Source of the DNA: a bacterium
Lineage (GTDB): Bacteria > Hydrogenedentota > Hydrogenedentia > Hydrogenedentiales > SLHB01
Length of the DNA stretch: 10,443 bases
NCBI GenBank assembly: GCA_024231375.1
Contig: JAAEQP010001532.1
Location: 1 to 10,443, forward strand
Direction of reading: 5' to 3'
The notes beneath the pieces were generated by a model. That model saw nothing but the letters and a program-made list of their open reading frames with translations, did not search any database and was not told where the DNA came from. Below, piece by piece: positions 3,593-10,443 of the stretch. Every line of letters begins with the position of its first letter. The first letter of the stretch is position 1. A program made the translations under genes and the position numbers.

Positions 3593-3625
3593 GGGCGCGC
3601 GGGGCCGACACAAGACTGCCGGACC

Positions 3626-3680
3626 CCTCACCCTGCCCTCTCCCAGCCGCGGCTGGCAAGCCGCAGGGAGAGGGTAAGAG
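3626..3680. repeat. Palindromic intergenic repeat, possible bidirectional terminator
   Basis: Nested inverted repeat between two convergent genes. The outer arms CCCTCTCCC (3636-3644) and GGGAGAGGG (3666-3674) are perfectly complementary. The inner arms GCGGCT (3649-3654) and AGCCGC (3659-3664) close on a 4-nt loop GGCA. The flanks (CCCTCACCCTG and TAAGAG) extend the pairing imperfectly. The CCCTCACCC...CCCTCTCCC pattern is a common dispersed intergenic palindrome in environmental bacteria. There is no T-tract, so its terminator role is inferred from the convergent position. Confidence 0.6.
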
Positions 3681-4976: not shown

Positions 4977-7892
4977 CTACCGGGGGCCGTGAAACACGGC
5001 ATCCGCGAAGGCATGGGGCTCACCTGTCGCCACCTGCGTCTTGCCGCAAGTGAGGTTGGACCCGTTCGCCAGGGCGGCGTATGCCGCGGAGCCGGCACCG
5101 TCCAGCCGAACGAGTGCGAGTTCGGCGTCGGTTTGGAGAGGGGCGTCGCCGAGGAGTGCTTCGGCGGTGGCGGCGTCTTGGTGGTCGCGGATGAGGATGA
5201 GGTCTTCGCGGCCATCGGTGAGGGTAATGACGAGTCCGACGTGGCTGTCTGGAAGTACGGAACCGTCGGGTGCGAGGACGTTTACGCGCCGGATGGACTG
5301 GACGACGCGCGCGGTTCCATACGGCTCGACGACGGCCACGAATGTGGAGGCCAGGGGCTGCCCTTCGGCCGCGGCCCGCTGAATCAGCACGCGGGGAACC
5401 CAGGTTTCGGTGGTGGAGTTGTAGACGCCTTCGACAACCCAGCCTTCGGTGAGGCCGGCGGATGCGCCGGTCGTGAGATCGGTGTAGCGCAGATGCACTT
5501 CTTCGCCGTCGGACAGGAGGCCATGGCGGTCGTCGATGGTCCAGTCGACGGACCAGCCGGACTCGGGCGCGGCGTCCATCCGCGTGTTGCGTGTGATAGC
5601 GCCGGCGCCGAACTCGTCGGCGGGCGTGAGGTCCAGGCCTTCGGCGTCGACGGTCCCGAAATGGCTGTGCATGAACTTGGTGTGCTGGGACCCGCCGGCC
5701 ACGCGGAACACGTCGACCAGGTAGACGTCCTCGTCCGACACATCCACGGTGAGGACGGTTCGCTCGTAGCGGTTGCCGCCGTTGAGGCCGGGGCCGGATG
5801 CGCGGATGGCCTTGCATTGACGGCCATCGGCCCAGAGCTGGGTGTGACCAGGCTCGCCGCCGTTGTTGTTGCGGTCCACGACGACGGTGTTGTGGGCGGC
5901 GGTTGCGACGTAGGACCGGGCCTTGGGGGCGCCCCACCCGCCAAACTGGACGGGGGGGTAGCCGAAGTCGGGCATGAGGTCGAGTCCGCGGGCGAAGAGG
6001 CCGAGGTTCATGCCGTCGGGGTGGCCATGGCCGCCGCCGGAATCGTAGTCGAGCCATGCGACGCGCGCATGCGGTCCTTGTCCCGAGCGCAGCAGTGCAA
6101 TGTGCCATTGTTCCTTGTTGATGCAGCCTTGACGGACCAACGTGCCTTCACGCTCGATGACGGCCGCGATGCCGGTGCGGACAGCGGCGGGGTCGTCGCA
6201 ATAGATGTCGAAGGGCAAGCCGTCGAGGTCGCCGTCGTTGGCGTGGTAGAGGGTCTGGACGAAGGCGACGTCGCCGGTGAGTTCGTACAACTGCCAGAGG
6301 GTGGAGAAGGACGAGGGCGGCAGCGGCGACCACCCCGAACACACAGGGGAGCCGTCGGCGGGCTTGAGGAACGTCATGCCTTTGTACTCGGGCATGGCGC
6401 CCGCGAACCAGCCGGTGTCACCGGAGAGAGGATAGTACTGCTGCAAACACCGGGTGTCGATGTGAAACCGGTAGGTCTGGTGCAAGCGTGGCTGGCGGTC
6501 GATCGCCTTCTTCAAGAATCCGGGGTCGGTCTTGGTGAATTCACCCAGAAACATGGCCAGGGACTGAATGGTGTAGCAGGTATAGCCGGCAAGCCCTTTT
6601 TCACCGGTAACGCCGTCTACAGCGGTGGCGCGGACGAGCATGGGGTCGACGATGTCCCAGAAGGCGGCTTCGTTCTCTGGCCACCCCAACACGGCGAAGA
6701 TGATGCCCACGGCGATTTCGGTGCGGGGATAGTTGGTGTGGATCTTGGCGCGGTTGGCGAGGGCGTCCCGCAGGATGCGGGTTTCGATGTTGTCCTGGAC
6801 GCGGGCAAAGGTGTCCTTGGGGTTGGCGAGTTGGTACTGGCGCGCCTTCTCGGCGAGAAACGCGACCAGGGCCTCGTCGTGGCGAATGGTCTCGAAGATC
6901 ATGTCATAGGCCATGACGAGTTCGCGGGTTTCTTCGCAGGCGTCATGCCAGGTGGACACGTAGCCGGCGGCGCCCTTGCCTTCGTACAAGATTCCCTGCT
7001 GGCCGAAATCGAAGGTCGGATGGAGGTCGGCGACGCGGTCGAGCATGATGCCGGCTTTGTGCGCGTAGACGGGATCGTCGGTCATGACGTGGGCGGCGGC
7101 CAATGTGCGGATTCCACCGACAAGGGCCTGCTTCCATTGCCCGTAGATGAGGTAAGCGCCAATGAAGCGCCAGCGGTTTCCGTCCTTGTCGACGTACCCT
7201 TCGCCGTCGTCCACGCCGAACGTGTGGAGCGGGTCGGACGGGTCGGGATGGTCTGCGTTGAACAGGAGGGCGCGGTCTGCGCGGGCGGGATCGAACACGC
7301 CGTGTTCATCCAGGCCCGTCTTGTAGAAGGCGGCGAAGTCGTTTGTGGGGAACACTGCGTCGCAGTGCGGGCATTGCGTCTTCCAGGGACACCCCATGGC
7401 GTCCATCTTCCAGTTGTACATGGGGACGCTCTCGCCGCAGGTGGGACAGTGGCCGTTGGACCAGACCATCCAGGAGCGCCGAATGGTTGCGCCGAACATG
7501 AGGTCCCATAGATCGTCGTCCGACAGATCCATCCACGGCTGGGCGGCCGCGACGAGATCGTCGCGCACGCTGGCGGTCCATTCGTCGTTGGCGGCGTTGG
7601 CCCGGACACGCGCCACCACGTCGGCAGAGTAGAGGGTGCTGGCTTGTTTCACAGGCGGTGCTTCCTCGGCCCCCTGGGCAAGCGTGCTGAGCAACACGAG
7701 TGCCGCGGAAGTCGCAAGGATGCGTCGCGCCTTACGCGACGACCTTGAGAAGAGCCCGAGACAGACCCGTCTCGCTTCGTGCAGGCCGCGAGAAGGCCTG
7801 GGACAGTCCCGTCTGCGTCCGCCTACGGCGGACTCCGCTTGGGACAGTCCCGGTTTCTCGCTTCTCCGCCTGCGCGCAGTTACTGTCGTCAT
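4977..7892 (-). CDS. Secreted heparinase II/III-family protein with insert-bearing leader
   Basis: 971 residues. From about residue 100 to 500 it looks like the alpha/alpha-toroid of heparinase II/III polysaccharide lyases; from about 550 on it is beta-sandwich. The family hallmarks are GHGHPDG with H622 and H624, LMPDFGYP shortly after, and AHNTVVVD with H667. C149/C152 (CPTC) and C174/C177 (CPHC) form a zinc-ribbon-like four-cysteine set. Known: relatives cleave uronic-acid polysaccharides such as heparan sulfate or alginate by beta-elimination; the exact substrate cannot be read here. Odd: the signal peptide core is at residues 58-71 with probable cleavage after QGA (residue 75), behind a 57-residue Arg-rich leader encoded largely by a palindromic repeat. 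No ATG, GTG or TTG lies in frame between 7892 and the signal core, and GGGAG sits 6 nt before the ATG at 7892. The stop of the GH51 gene is 21 nt upstream, which indicates an operon. Confidence 0.85.
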   Translation of the reverse strand: MTTVTARRRRSEKPGLSQAESAVGGRRRDCPRPSRGLHEARRVCLGLFSRSSRKARRILATSAALVLLSTLAQGAEEAPPVKQASTLYSADVVARVRANAANDEWTASVRDDLVAAAQPWMDLSDDDLWDLMFGATIRRSWMVWSNGHCPTCGESVPMYNWKMDAMGCPWKTQCPHCDAVFPTNDFAAFYKTGLDEHGVFDPARADRALLFNADHPDPSDPLHTFGVDDGEGYVDKDGNRWRFIGAYLIYGQWKQALVGGIRTLAAAHVMTDDPVYAHKAGIMLDRVADLHPTFDFGQQGILYEGKGAAGYVSTWHDACEETRELVMAYDMIFETIRHDEALVAFLAEKARQYQLANPKDTFARVQDNIETRILRDALANRAKIHTNYPRTEIAVGIIFAVLGWPENEAAFWDIVDPMLVRATAVDGVTGEKGLAGYTCYTIQSLAMFLGEFTKTDPGFLKKAIDRQPRLHQTYRFHIDTRCLQQYYPLSGDTGWFAGAMPEYKGMTFLKPADGSPVCSGWSPLPPSSFSTLWQLYELTGDVAFVQTLYHANDGDLDGLPFDIYCDDPAAVRTGIAAVIEREGTLVRQGCINKEQWHIALLRSGQGPHARVAWLDYDSGGGHGHPDGMNLGLFARGLDLMPDFGYPPVQFGGWGAPKARSYVATAAHNTVVVDRNNNGGEPGHTQLWADGRQCKAIRASGPGLNGGNRYERTVLTVDVSDEDVYLVDVFRVAGGSQHTKFMHSHFGTVDAEGLDLTPADEFGAGAITRNTRMDAAPESGWSVDWTIDDRHGLLSDGEEVHLRYTDLTTGASAGLTEGWVVEGVYNSTTETWVPRVLIQRAAAEGQPLASTFVAVVEPYGTARVVQSIRRVNVLAPDGSVLPDSHVGLVITLTDGREDLILIRDHQDAATAEALLGDAPLQTDAELALVRLDGAGSAAYAALANGSNLTCGKTQVATGEPHAFADAVFHGPR
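7723..7741. repeat. Hairpin inside the heparinase leader
   Basis: CGTCGCG-CCTTA-CGCGACG is a perfect 7-bp stem with a 5-nt loop. It lies in the coding sequence just before the hydrophobic core of the signal peptide and adjoins the decayed repeat at 7745-7774, so it may be part of the same insertion history. Confidence 0.4.
7745..7774 (+). repeat. Decayed partial copy of the palindromic repeat
   Basis: GAAGAGCCCGAGACAGACCC followed by GTCT aligns to GAAGGCCTGGGACAGTCCC followed by GTCT in the intact repeat, with one inserted base and three substitutions. The GACAG cores are 42 nt apart, which is exactly 14 codons. The encoded peptides correspond: RRDCPRPSR from the intact copy and RRVCLGLFSR from this one. 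It also forms a 6-bp stem CGAGAC/GTCTCG at 7757-7774. Confidence 0.5.
7788..7861 (+). repeat. 74-bp imperfect palindromic repeat inserted in frame in the heparinase leader
   Basis: The ends GCGAGAA and TTCTCGC are inverted. Each half carries GGGACAGTCCC (7800-7810 and 7841-7851), itself a palindrome. The centre is a perfect 7-bp stem GTCCGCC-TAC-GGCGGAC (7817-7833). The two halves pair along most of their length. Bases 7786-7834 match 10395-10443 at 47 of 49 positions in the same orientation, so this is a dispersed repeat. It encodes about residues 11-35 of the heparinase ORF without a stop. Confidence 0.8.
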
Positions 7893-7898
7893 GCCTGT

Positions 7899-7903
7899 CT
7901 CCC
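7899..7903 (-). promoter_or_regulatory. Ribosome binding site of the heparinase-family gene
   Basis: The minus strand reads GGGAG, 6 nt before the ATG at 7892, within the 21-nt gap after the GH51 stop codon. It supports translation from 7892 despite the abnormal leader that follows. Confidence 0.6.
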
Positions 7904-7913
7904 GTCCGTGGTG

Positions 7914-10232
7914 CTACTCGACCTTCAGTTCGAAGAGGGTTGCGCTAAGCGGCTGCAACGGCAAGGGTCCTCCAGGCTTGAAGCCGCTCATATGGAAATC
8001 ATGCACGTTCACGTTTCGCGGCTTGCCGGGTTCGTTGTAGGCCATGGGATCGTTGCCCGTGATCATCCACCCGCCGTTACAGCCCTTCACCTCGACGCCC
8101 TCGAAGGAGAGGTCCAATACCATGTCGTCGTCCATGGGGTTCACCACAGCGAGGGTGATGGCCTTCTTGTCCGCCGTCCATGCCGCGGCCACATCGAGGG
8201 GACCGGTATCGCCGTCCACCTTGATGGGAATGACGCCGTAGTGCTTGCGGTACAGCATCAGCGGCAGGCCGGTGGCCGCGAATTCGGCGGCGGTGTCGGT
8301 GGTCTTGATGCACCCGATGACATTGACGGTCTGGGCGTAGTTGGCCATGTAGAACACGTCGCTGTGGCGCGTCATCTCGTGGATGCCTTCGGCGATGCCC
8401 AGCGCGTCCTTGAGGTAGTAGCGGGTTCCGAGTTCGCCGTAGACGTGATCGCCGTACCAGTAGTTCCATTCGTCGAGGGCGATGGGAATGGATTTGCCCT
8501 GCAAGGCCGCGATGGTCTCGTGGTATTTTCGATGATGGTAGGCCTTGCGGCGAACACTCTGCGGAATTTGGCGCACGTGGGCCAGCAGGCCCGGTTGTTC
8601 ACCACAATAGAAATGTTCGCTGAGCGCGTCCATGTGATCGGCGGATTCCGTCAGCATGGTCTCGGTCCATTTCCCGCTCGCGCCGACGGCCACCACCTTG
8701 ATGTCAGGCGACTGGGCGCGCATGGCGTCGACGAAGGCGTTGTGTTTCTTCACGTAGTCTTCGAGGGGCATATGGCCAATTTGCCAATTGCCGTACATCT
8801 CGTTGCCGATGCCCCACCACGTGACGTTGTAGGGTTCGGGGTGGCCGTTCCGTGCGCGGACCTTGCCCATGGGTGTGTCGGCGGCGCCGTTGACGTATTC
8901 CAGTTCTTCCAACGCCATATCGACCTCACCCGCACCGGTGTTCACGACCACGAGCGGTTCCGTGCCGATTTCTTTGCAGTACAGCATGAAATCGTCGATG
9001 CCGAAATCGTTGGAATCGACGCCTTTCCACGCGGGATTCTTGCGCGGCGGGCGCTTGTCGCGGTCGCCGATGCCGTCGCGCCAGTCGTAGCCGCTGACGA
9101 AGTTGCCGCCCGGCCACCGGTAGATGGGCGAATCGAGTTGTTTGAGCAGCGCAAGCGTATCGGCTCGCATGCCGTGGACGTTGTCCGCGGGCATGAGCGA
9201 GACCGTGCCGACGACCACGCGGCTCTTGCCCACGGCGTTGATGGCAAGGCCCGACTTGAAGTATGGGAATCCATTCACGACCTCGAACGTAGTCTTGACA
9301 AACTTGTTCGGGTCGAGATTGGCATCGATTACGAGAACGTTGTGCTCTTCATCGCCCATGCCCACCCTCGCCTGGCCCTCTCCTTTGAGCCAAACATAGC
9401 CTTCGTATGTCCTGCCCGGCACAAGCTCAACGGGCGCGGAGACAATGGCGTAGGATTCGCCCTCTCCCCCACTCTCGAGCAGGGGCGACCATTCGCCCAC
9501 GAAAGGCTCTTCCGTAGTCATGGACACACTGCCCCCTGATGAACCGGCAACGCCCCACGGCGATTCCTCGGCCTTCACGTCGTAGAAGAACTTTCGGTCT
9601 TCGATCATCTCCGACCAGATGCCGCCGTAGATGCAGCGGCCGAGGTGTTCGATGAACTGACCGTAGATGTACTCCGAAATGGGCGGGCCCGTCTCGTTGG
9701 CCTTCACCACCGCCTTGGGTTCGAGAGTCATGGTCGAGATCAGCTCCAACTGCACGTCGTCGAACCACGCCTTGCCAGTGGATGTCCCCCACCCGCCAAA
9801 GAGACAGTTCACCTGGACCGAATCCAGGTCGTTGGTGTCGAAGGTGACCTCGACACGGGTCCAGTCTTTGGTGCCTGTGATGGGAGGCGTGTGGACGGGC
9901 CGGAGGCCGTGGATGTTGAATAGTGCGCCTTCGCCCGACCCGGCTTTGACCTTCTTGGTTTTCACCCAACCCGACAAGCGATAGGTGGAGAAGGGCTTCA
10001 CGGCCACGTGCCGTTGCCAGGTGAGGTCGCCGCCCCTGTCCGACGCGATCATGACGCTACGGCTGCCCGTGTGGCCGATGTCGGCGTAGACGAATTCGCC
10101 TTCGCCGTTCCACACGTGGGTTTCCCAACCGGCCGGTTCCTGGCCGCCTTCCTCAAAAGACGGATTGGGCACGGCGTTGTCGGCGGACGGGTTCTGAGCG
10201 AGGAACATCGTGGCGACAAGTATGGCGTTCAT
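7914..10232 (-). CDS. GH51 alpha-L-arabinofuranosidase with N-terminal carbohydrate-binding domain
   Basis: 772 residues from the ATG at 10232. A short hydrophobic leader (residues 3-12) is followed by a jelly-roll carbohydrate-binding domain (about 20-165: VPNPSFEEG at the start, GKAWFDDVQLE at the end, CBM4/9-like). GH51 then begins near residue 187 with YIYGQFIEHLGRCIYGGIW. A second beta-sandwich-like insert follows (about 210-350), then RWPGGNFVSGYDWRDGIG (about 371). The acid/base glutamate is E478 in GIGNEMYGNW and the nucleophile is E588 in ALDEWNYWY. A C-terminal beta-sandwich completes the fold. Known: GH51 retaining enzymes release terminal arabinofuranose from arabinan and arabinoxylan; the family also includes some endoglucanases. 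All key residues are present. An ATG at 10268 would add 12 residues including RNWRR, which gives a better basic signal n-region, but its GGAG touches the start codon; the later ATG has proper spacing. It is probably the first gene of an operon with the heparinase-family gene. Confidence 0.9.
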   Translation of the reverse strand: MNAILVATMFLAQNPSADNAVPNPSFEEGGQEPAGWETHVWNGEGEFVYADIGHTGSRSVMIASDRGGDLTWQRHVAVKPFSTYRLSGWVKTKKVKAGSGEGALFNIHGLRPVHTPPITGTKDWTRVEVTFDTNDLDSVQVNCLFGGWGTSTGKAWFDDVQLELISTMTLEPKAVVKANETGPPISEYIYGQFIEHLGRCIYGGIWSEMIEDRKFFYDVKAEESPWGVAGSSGGSVSMTTEEPFVGEWSPLLESGGEGESYAIVSAPVELVPGRTYEGYVWLKGEGQARVGMGDEEHNVLVIDANLDPNKFVKTTFEVVNGFPYFKSGLAINAVGKSRVVVGTVSLMPADNVHGMRADTLALLKQLDSPIYRWPGGNFVSGYDWRDGIGDRDKRPPRKNPAWKGVDSNDFGIDDFMLYCKEIGTEPLVVVNTGAGEVDMALEELEYVNGAADTPMGKVRARNGHPEPYNVTWWGIGNEMYGNWQIGHMPLEDYVKKHNAFVDAMRAQSPDIKVVAVGASGKWTETMLTESADHMDALSEHFYCGEQPGLLAHVRQIPQSVRRKAYHHRKYHETIAALQGKSIPIALDEWNYWYGDHVYGELGTRYYLKDALGIAEGIHEMTRHSDVFYMANYAQTVNVIGCIKTTDTAAEFAATGLPLMLYRKHYGVIPIKVDGDTGPLDVAAAWTADKKAITLAVVNPMDDDMVLDLSFEGVEVKGCNGGWMITGNDPMAYNEPGKPRNVNVHDFHMSGFKPGGPLPLQPLSATLFELKVE

Positions 10233-10239
10233 GGTACGT

Positions 10240-10243
10240 CTCC
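10240..10243 (-). promoter_or_regulatory. Ribosome binding site of the GH51 gene
   Basis: The minus strand reads TTGGAG, ending 7 nt before the ATG at 10232. The in-frame ATG at 10268 has a GGAG with no spacer, which is too close for normal initiation, so 10232 is favoured. Confidence 0.6.
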
Positions 10244-10268
10244 AATTCCGGCTACAGTTTGTGACCAT

Positions 10269-10394: not shown

Positions 10395-10443
10395 CCGCGA
10401 GAAGACCTGGGACAGTCCCGTCTGCGTCCGCCTGCGGCGGACT
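10327..10443 (+). CDS. Possible 5' end of a divergent gene, runs off the window
   Basis: An ATG at 10327 opens 39 codons to the window edge with mostly G or C third bases. The first 22 residues (from MAVSGQSVGKQDYWQRV) are unique; the last 16 or so are encoded by the palindromic repeat. The upstream GGCGAGAG is a poor ribosome binding site. I recognise no family. It may be chance, or a gene carrying the repeat in its N-terminus like the heparinase-family gene. Confidence 0.15.
   Translation, partial: MAVSGQSVGKQDYWQRVESRYVDREKTWDSPVCVRLRRT
10395..10443 (+). repeat. Second copy of the palindromic repeat, cut by the window end
   Basis: Matches 7786-7834 at 47 of 49 bases in the same orientation. 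The differences are G/A at 10405 and A/G at 10434. It contains the GGGACAGTCCC palindrome and the GTCCGCC/GGCGGAC stem. The right half of the palindrome would lie outside the window. The two copies flank the GH51 gene as direct repeats about 2.6 kb apart. Confidence 0.8.

What the first reader, a model, noticed from the sequence alone, without database searches (positions are those of the whole stretch)
7745..7892. Palindromic repeat accommodated in frame between start codon and signal peptide
The signal core of the heparinase-family protein begins only at residue 58. No in-frame ATG, GTG or TTG exists between 7892 and that core, and 7892 has a well-spaced GGGAG. Almost all of the extra Arg-rich leader is encoded by a 74-bp palindrome (7788-7861) plus a decayed relative. 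That a repeat also found outside the gene stays open in this frame resembles Rickettsia palindromic elements, which persist inside genes. It may tax secretion, be tolerated, or have broken the gene.
Basis: partly seen in the sequence, partly recalled or inferred. Interest (0 to 1): 0.7.

Follow-up and report, generated by a model that had tools for sequence, protein, structure and literature searches.

The report
Protein-coding palindromic repeats in Hydrogenedentota
A small palindromic DNA repeat appears to have landed, without breaking the reading frame, between the start codon and the export signal of a sugar-degrading enzyme, and the same repeat family sits in frame inside other conserved genes of this little-known bacterial phylum, so it can be used to study how proteins tolerate inserted DNA.

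Summary
ORF 4977-7892(-), a PF07940 protein, has no ATG/GTG/TTG between 7892 and the signal core. About 40 of its 57 leader residues come from a palindromic repeat (7786-7865) plus a decayed third unit (7745-7790). None of 119 listed homologues fills half of those columns. The repeat is a dispersed family: two GGGACTGTCCC cores, a purine-rich loop and co-varying outer arms. It matches in 41 of 68 Hydrogenedentota genomes held (33 of 68 at E<=1e-5), against 2 of 119 and 2 of 101 in two other phyla at E<=1e-5. Of 142 copies classed, 105 are intergenic; nine or ten lie inside ORFs that look coding on both sides, among them RecG, HsdM, a nucleoside hydrolase and a Kdo-type kinase, and all six frames are used. 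RecG carries a 132-bp net in-frame insertion absent from two close relatives. The hydrolase array differs by 20 residues from a 94%-identical relative. This works like Rickettsia palindromic elements but has another architecture and no identified mobilising enzyme. Whether the window enzyme is still secreted cannot be settled from sequence.

The parts
4977..7892 (-). heparinase II/III-family ORF (971 aa) that carries the repeat in its N-terminal leader
   Evidence: ORF; Pfam PF07940 E 2.9e-7; 1387 homologues at E<=1e-3, 120 listed, top-scoring foreign one 64% identical over 93% of the query
7890..7892 (-). start codon ATG, the only canonical start before codon 66
7899..7903 (-). GGGAG, ribosome-binding-site-like, 6 nt before the ATG
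   Evidence: sequence
   Evidence: nhmmer E 4.2e-13 from 47 foreign copies; CM 53.8 bits; alignment A1
7841..7851 (-). first core GGGACTGTCCC
7800..7810 (-). second core GGGACTGTCCC
7817..7833 (-). inner hairpin GTCCGCC-GTA-GGCGGAC in the loop
   Evidence: sequence and fold
7745..7790 (-). decayed third unit (3' half of an element; core GGGTCTGTCTC at 7758-7768)
   Evidence: nhmmer E 2.8e-4, aligned 7754-7784
7668..7721 (-). signal-peptide core and likely cleavage region (ILATSAALVLLSTLAQGA)
   Evidence: translation, read by eye, no signal-peptide predictor was run; homologues begin shortly before the matching segment
10395..10443 (-). second, intergenic copy cut by the contig end
   Evidence: 96% identity over 49 nt; nhmmer E 6.4e-6
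7914..10268 (-). upstream alpha-L-arabinofuranosidase-like gene, 21 bp before the ATG and in the same frame
   Evidence: Pfam PF06964, PF22848, PF02018; frame

Best explanation
The leader is an in-frame insertion of a dispersed palindromic repeat family of Hydrogenedentota (two GGGACTGTCCC cores, loop AAGCG..AGAC, self-complementary outer arms) into the short n-region of an ordinary signal peptide. Insertion (RecG) and change in unit number (nucleoside hydrolase) are shown by comparison in other genes of the phylum; for this gene they are inferred from homologues and family membership. Copies that keep the frame survive because the repeat is, in several genomes, poor in stop codons and because flexible or terminal protein regions tolerate roughly 12-64 extra residues. 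Here about 40 codons (residues 11-50) were added between MTTVTARRRR and SSRKARRILATSAALVLL. The most likely state is a full-length enzyme made from ATG 7892 with an over-long n-region in front of a still usable signal core (inferred). What moves the repeat is unknown; transfer through a single-stranded hairpin is a guess from the co-varying arms.
For: No listed homologue has the segment (0 of 119); anchor +52 residues against the median. Family profile hits. 41 of 68 phylum genomes match. RecG: 132-bp net in-frame insertion against two close relatives. Nucleoside hydrolase: 119 of 120 listed homologues lack the insert, and the 94%-identical P0241 is 20 residues longer; AlphaFold2 model mean pLDDT 87.7, residues 264-297 below 50. 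HsdM, Kdo-type kinase, rhomboid, HsdR and PQQ protein. All six frames used in the window and ten other hosts. Outer arms co-vary: 74 two-sided changes against 29.6 +- 6.2 shuffled, slid controls at most 45. The ORF is open over 971 codons.
Against: Interior copies are few: 9-10 of 142, and 0 of 75 in the second batch. Copies at ORF 5' ends can lie upstream of the true start; the window differs in lacking a canonical start between the repeat and the signal core, but it does have GTG at codon 66. Six-frame openness is not general (G059: 0 of 26). No expression or secretion data. The window is one contig with no independent copy, and repeats can cause false joins.
Confidence: 0.72

Rival explanations
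1. The insertion broke the gene: the protein is made but not exported, or hardly made because of the strong hairpin that begins near codon 11, and the ORF is a young pseudogene.
For: 57-residue leader with 15 Arg and 2 Lys before the core; 7745-7892 folds at -70.9 kcal/mol. 116 of 119 listed homologues have the anchor at residue 127 or less.
Against: No stop or frameshift in 971 codons; the top-scoring foreign homologue aligns at 64% identity over 93% of the query. The copies inside RecG, HsdM and the hydrolase leave open ORFs.
Confidence: 0.22
2. Translation starts after the repeat at a non-canonical codon (CTG codon 37 at 7784, or ATC codon 58 at 7721), so the repeat is untranslated leader RNA.
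For: CTG and ATC exist there. PMC3733652 (passages read) warns that many REPs at ORF N-termini may be extragenic because translation starts downstream.
Against: No ATG/GTG/TTG before codon 66. The database start for this protein (P0001, which corresponds to GTG codon 81) would delete the signal peptide. ATG 7892 has a well-placed GGGAG and lies 21 bp after the upstream gene.
Confidence: 0.12
3. Assembly chimera: two loci falsely joined at the repeat.
For: The contig ends in another copy at 10443; in fetched genomes contigs also end at or near copies (L124, L125, L155, L171). No tested relative shows the arabinofuranosidase beside the heparinase gene (0 of 38 loci at E<=1e-5), but most of those loci reach only 1.5 kb past the match.
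Against: The join is in frame, has a plausible start and Arg-rich n-region, and contains a decayed third unit that a simple repeat collapse would not create (inference).
Confidence: 0.1

Closest known systems
Rickettsia palindromic elements (RPE; Ogata et al. 2000, 2002, known here only through passages of PMC2229807 and PMC10969869)
   Same: Short palindromic repeats in frame inside unrelated conserved genes as well as between genes; hosts keep an open frame.
   Different: RPE are described there as 105-146 or about 150 bp, with an ORF encoding a conserved peptide; here single units with 14-nt flanks are 66-86 nt with GGGACTGTCCC cores, all six frames are used, in-gene unit number changes, and the phylum is unrelated. 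Sequences were not compared.
GTAG- and CGTC-tagged REPs (PMC3733652, passages read)
   Same: Dispersed palindromes, mostly intergenic, some inside genes including DNA repair genes; CGTC REPs also lack a dedicated transposase.
   Different: The tag-plus-stem architecture is largely absent here: CGTC in 45 of 48 copies but followed by a 7-8 bp stem in 4; GTAG in 8, with stem in 0.
Enterobacterial RU-1/ERIC, RU-2, RU-3 (PMC2759123, passages read)
   Same: MITE-like repeats with open frames fused to genes.
   Different: 103-168 bp; sequences were not compared.
Coding palindromes of Nematomorpha mitochondria (PMC6649704, passages read)
   Same: Palindromes inside coding sequence with complementary arms kept through evolution.
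   Different: Long perfect hairpins in mitochondrial genes, distinguished by those authors from insertion elements such as RPE.

Membership tests
Rickettsia palindromic element (RPE) | palindromic repeat dispersed in the genome | tested here: met
   1 to 69 matches per genome in 41 of 68 genomes, at most 70 candidates scored per genome; pairing
Rickettsia palindromic element (RPE) | in-frame copies inside unrelated conserved genes | tested here: met
Rickettsia palindromic element (RPE) | length 105-150 bp | tested here: not met
   single copies with 14-nt flanks are 66-86 nt; arrays can be longer
Rickettsia palindromic element (RPE) | ORF with a conserved encoded peptide (as stated in PMC10969869) | tested here: not met
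   six frames, hence unrelated peptides, in 11 hosts including the window
Rickettsia palindromic element (RPE) | sequence similarity to RPE families | not tested
   no RPE sequence was fetched
CGTC-tagged REP | unpaired CGTC followed by 8-9 bp stem, 4-5 nt loop | tested here: not met
   CGTC in 45 of 48; with a 7-8 bp stem (1 mismatch allowed, loop 3-6) in 4 of 48
GTAG REP / RAYT system | GTAG tag with stem | tested here: not met
   GTAG 8 of 48, with stem 0 of 48
GTAG REP / RAYT system | RAYT (Y1_Tnp) gene flanked by the repeats | tested here: inconclusive
   two Y1_Tnp ORFs in 117 element loci, 46 bp (L118) and 2.6 kb (L295) from a copy (with a less sensitive model had found only L118). Y1_Tnp in 54 of 68 genomes: present in genomes without repeat match (G012, G042), none found in G049, which has 48 matches
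MITE | terminal inverted repeats | tested here: met
   19-pair arm helix, 87.1% of cells paired
MITE | target-site duplication | tested here: inconclusive
   RecG flanks too diverged to define one
MITE | matching autonomous transposon | tested here: inconclusive
   no gene family recurs close beside the copies in 60 loci and the window; an IS with matching ends was not searched for

The most novel reading that the evidence does not exclude
A phylum-wide repeat whose core has, in some lineages, been shaped to be translatable in all six frames, so that either orientation and any phase can survive inside genes, and which then grows in codon-multiple steps, acting as a source of new protein loops and, in the window, of a new preprotein leader.
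Probability: 0.25. Interest if true: 0.75.

Novelty: new member of a known kind. Interest (0 to 1): 0.55.

Why it matters
In the papers seen, protein-coding palindromes are described mainly from Rickettsia and from some REP-rich genomes. A family with another architecture in a largely uncultured phylum, with insertion-free close relatives (RecG) and unit-number variation inside a gene (nucleoside hydrolase), gives natural before/after pairs to test how proteins absorb inserted DNA. It also warns annotators: the public gene model of the window enzyme corresponds to a start at codon 81 and loses its signal peptide.

Tried and rejected
RAYT as the mover: Y1_Tnp genes occur in 54 of 68 genomes, but only two Y1_Tnp ORFs lie in 117 element loci, one 46 bp (L118) and one 2.6 kb (L295) from a copy. 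My first model had missed L295 and was replaced. Not supported, not excluded. Common neighbour gene: all-against-all comparison of ORFs in 60 loci plus the window; the largest family occurs in 7 loci but at 9 to 3221 bp from a copy, so nothing recurs close by. Rfam: no match in the window at gathering score. Gene disruption by out-of-frame copies: of 91 copies outside ORFs with both neighbours called, 9 lie flush (under 60 bp) between same-strand genes; 8 of the 9 pairs have different Pfam families on the two sides (for example dapA-dapB, exbB-exbD, AHAS small and large subunit) and one (L305) had a family on one side only. No split gene was seen among these 9; the other 82 were not tested. 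Six-frame openness as a universal property: rejected in that form. 42 of 72 copies (60 loci plus the window, in-gene and overlapping array pairs included) are six-open against 3.9 expected; among 110 copies not inside an ORF it is 34 against 7.5, only 10 of 20 genomes exceed expectation, and G059 (26 copies) has none. In-frame count in the window's own genome: not possible, no genome held. Literature, open-licence library only: searches (phylum name plus palindromic / repeat element) gave one paper, off topic by its listing, and none; search 37 for the core sequence gave 10 papers whose listing names no bacterial repeat; searches gave the prior art cited. PMC186582 (an RPE paper) is not held.
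Full report
Observation. The window is probably a Hydrogenedentota metagenome contig: by eye 7 of 14 homologues listed with an organism name and 5 of 8 related loci are Hydrogenedentes/Hydrogenedentota, and the repeat below is concentrated there; no own genome is held. ORF 4977-7892(-) encodes a PF07940 protein. ATG 7892 is its only ATG/GTG/TTG before codon 66; the in-frame TAG at 7916 (also the stop of the upstream arabinofuranosidase-like ORF) excludes earlier starts; GGGAG stands 6 nt upstream. The hydrophobic core starts at residue 58. The public gene model (P0001, 891 aa) corresponds to a start at GTG codon 81 and so loses the signal peptide.

Homologues. Of 1387 proteins at E<=1e-3, 120 were listed, one of them the window's own. 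In the other 119, the anchor R[STA]WMVW lies at residues 54-322, median 87; the window has it at 139. Only one reaches 139 (P0104, with a further Pfam domain). In a multiple alignment none of 119 fills half of window residues 11-50. Annotated starts of metagenome proteins can be wrong, but the window is the outlier. Taking away 40 residues on paper would put the anchor at about 99, inside the normal range (inference).

The repeat family. A search with 87 bases matched 15 of 68 genomes of the phylum of G001; a strict two-core pattern matched 12 of 68, with no match of the reversed control pattern. Oriented copies (74 pairs) share: outer arms around AAAAC / GTTTT, core GGGACTGT(C/A)CC, AAGCG, a variable loop, GAGAC, core GGGACTGTCCC. 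On 48 of them, given with 14-nt flanks (alignment A1), the arm helix forms 87.1% standard pairs, with 74 two-sided changes against 29.6 +- 6.2 in shuffles and at most 45 in slid controls: the arm sequences change but tend to stay complementary. RNAalifold's own consensus keeps 14 pairs, 5 with two-sided changes. The copies are related, so the shuffle count is not a probability. A covariance model from these copies finds matches in 41 of 68 genomes at E<=1e-3, at most 70 candidates scored per genome. At E<=1e-5, counted by eye from that table, it is 33 of 68, against 2 of 119 genomes of the phylum of G008 and 2 of 101 of the phylum of G007, where only 40 and 47 candidates per genome were scored, so those counts may be low. 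The bare two-core pattern also occurs in 9 of 392 genomes of the phylum of G008; the places listed have other spacers.

The window copies. A profile from the other 47 copies scores 7786-7865 at E 4.2e-13, the contig-end copy at 6.4e-6, and 7745-7790 at 2.8e-4; the covariance model lists only the first of these three.

Where copies lie. In 120 fetched loci (117 with copies used), 142 model matches were classed with a simple codon-usage gene caller of my own: 105 intergenic, 32 inside an ORF, 5 at an edge; called coding fraction 0.81. The 142 were transcribed from two model searches (102 and 126 matches), leaving out opposite-strand duplicates, matches under 37 bits, and four further matches of 37-39 bits (second matches in L143, L147, L167, L293). 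Of the 32, nine have coding scores of at least 7 on both sides (L138, L148, L150, L151, L165, L169, L171, L172, L173); L154 is added because a rhomboid domain spans the copy, though its upstream coding score is 0.1. All ten come from the first batch (67 copies); the second batch (75 copies, 28 of them from G059) has none. Most of the others sit at ORF ends, where an open repeat may simply extend the ORF; those near 5' ends have an ATG, GTG or TTG 0-59 codons downstream. In the window the next one is codon 66, about 35 codons after the second core, and lies in the signal core. L170, with five cores in a 990-codon ORF without Pfam match, was not in the 142. Interior copies are thus rare relative to the coding fraction, as expected if most gene insertions are lost or avoided.

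In-frame insertions in conserved genes. RecG of G013 (L150) carries four cores between the wedge and DEAD domains. G012 and G014, 92% and 89% identical over about residues 286-772 and 86% and 84% over about 31-239, lack them; the aligned DNA is 132 bp (44 codons) shorter there, with uncertain end points. The nucleoside hydrolase L172 (352 aa) has an insert that 119 of 120 listed homologues lack (less than half of the columns filled); the one that has it, P0241 (94% identical), is 372 aa, while P0242 (71% identical) is 308 aa. The AlphaFold2 model (alignment of 38 sequences, mean pLDDT 87.7) gives residues 264-297 below 50, between helix 250-259 and strand 305-314; 277 of 352 residues are at 90 or more. 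HsdM (L138) carries the repeat inside the N6_Mtase domain, in a loop that also varies elsewhere: 33 of 119 homologues fill at least half of those columns. A Kdo-type kinase (L173) is, counted by eye, 11-16 residues longer at the copy than 18 of 19 aligned relatives; the other one (L227) is longer still. HsdR (L165) and a PQQ protein (L171) are further hosts by Pfam. L148, L151 and L169 rest on coding score, with Pfam support on one side or none. Across these ten hosts and the window all six frames are used, the three antisense phases resting on L172/L173, L169 and L154.

Openness. 42 of 72 copies lack stops in all six frames against 3.9 expected from dinucleotide shuffles. Among 110 copies not inside an ORF it is 34 against 7.5, concentrated in some genomes (G003, G033, G050, G056); 10 of 20 genomes exceed expectation, G059 (26 copies) shows none, and 10 of 216 neighbouring stretches are six-open. 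The window copy is open in five of six frames, the whole 7745-7861 stretch in four. Openness is therefore a lineage trait, and the idea that it was selected for insertion tolerance is unproven.

Mechanism. Shown: a dispersed palindromic family, in-frame insertion in RecG, unit-number difference in the hydrolase, a disordered loop by prediction. Inferred: the same event in the heparinase leader; a functional signal peptide after it. Unknown: the mobilising enzyme. Y1_Tnp genes are common in the phylum (54 of 68), but in 117 element loci only two were found, 46 bp (L118) and 2.6 kb (L295) from a copy, and no other gene family recurs close beside the copies.

Comparison. The behaviour matches Rickettsia palindromic elements as described in PMC2229807 and PMC10969869 and intragenic REPs in PMC3733652 (passages read). 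Length, frame usage and architecture differ, and the CGTC/GTAG stem test fails. I file it as a new family of a known kind. I found no description of it in print in searches, which cover only an open-licence library.

Noticed in passing
window 10395-10443: The contig ends inside another copy of the repeat; other fetched contigs (L124, L125, L155, L171) also end at or near copies, so the family seems to fragment assemblies.
   Followed up: partly
window 7652 (P0001): The public gene model of the heparinase-family protein corresponds to a start at GTG codon 81 and drops the signal peptide.
   Followed up: yes
L138 aa 390-412 and P0122, P0126, P0134: The same HsdM loop holds different extra residues in other genomes, an insertion-prone site.
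   Followed up: no
L173 3020-4594: A Kdo-type kinase and an APH-type kinase form one ORF here, while many relatives have separate matches or a stop between them.
   Followed up: no
G317, G343, G190 (phylum of G008): Other GGGACTGTCCC-containing repeats with a different architecture (inverted pairs, short tandem arrays).
   Followed up: no
L118 3690-4575: A repeat array lies 46 bp from a Y1_Tnp ORF (Pfam E 9.4e-13 at G033:C122); of 117 loci only L295 has another, 2.6 kb away.
   Followed up: partly
L001 4804: A single GGGACTGTCCC core lies about 200 bp before the heparinase relative of another Hydrogenedentota genome.
   Followed up: no
window 3625-3674: Palindrome (CCCTCACCCTGCCCTCTCCC / GGGAGAGGG) between two convergent genes, possibly another dispersed repeat or a terminator.
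   Followed up: no
L322, L276, L312, L319, L149: Copies sit between likely operon partners such as dapA-dapB, exbB-exbD and the two AHAS subunits, so they are probably transcribed.
   Followed up: partly
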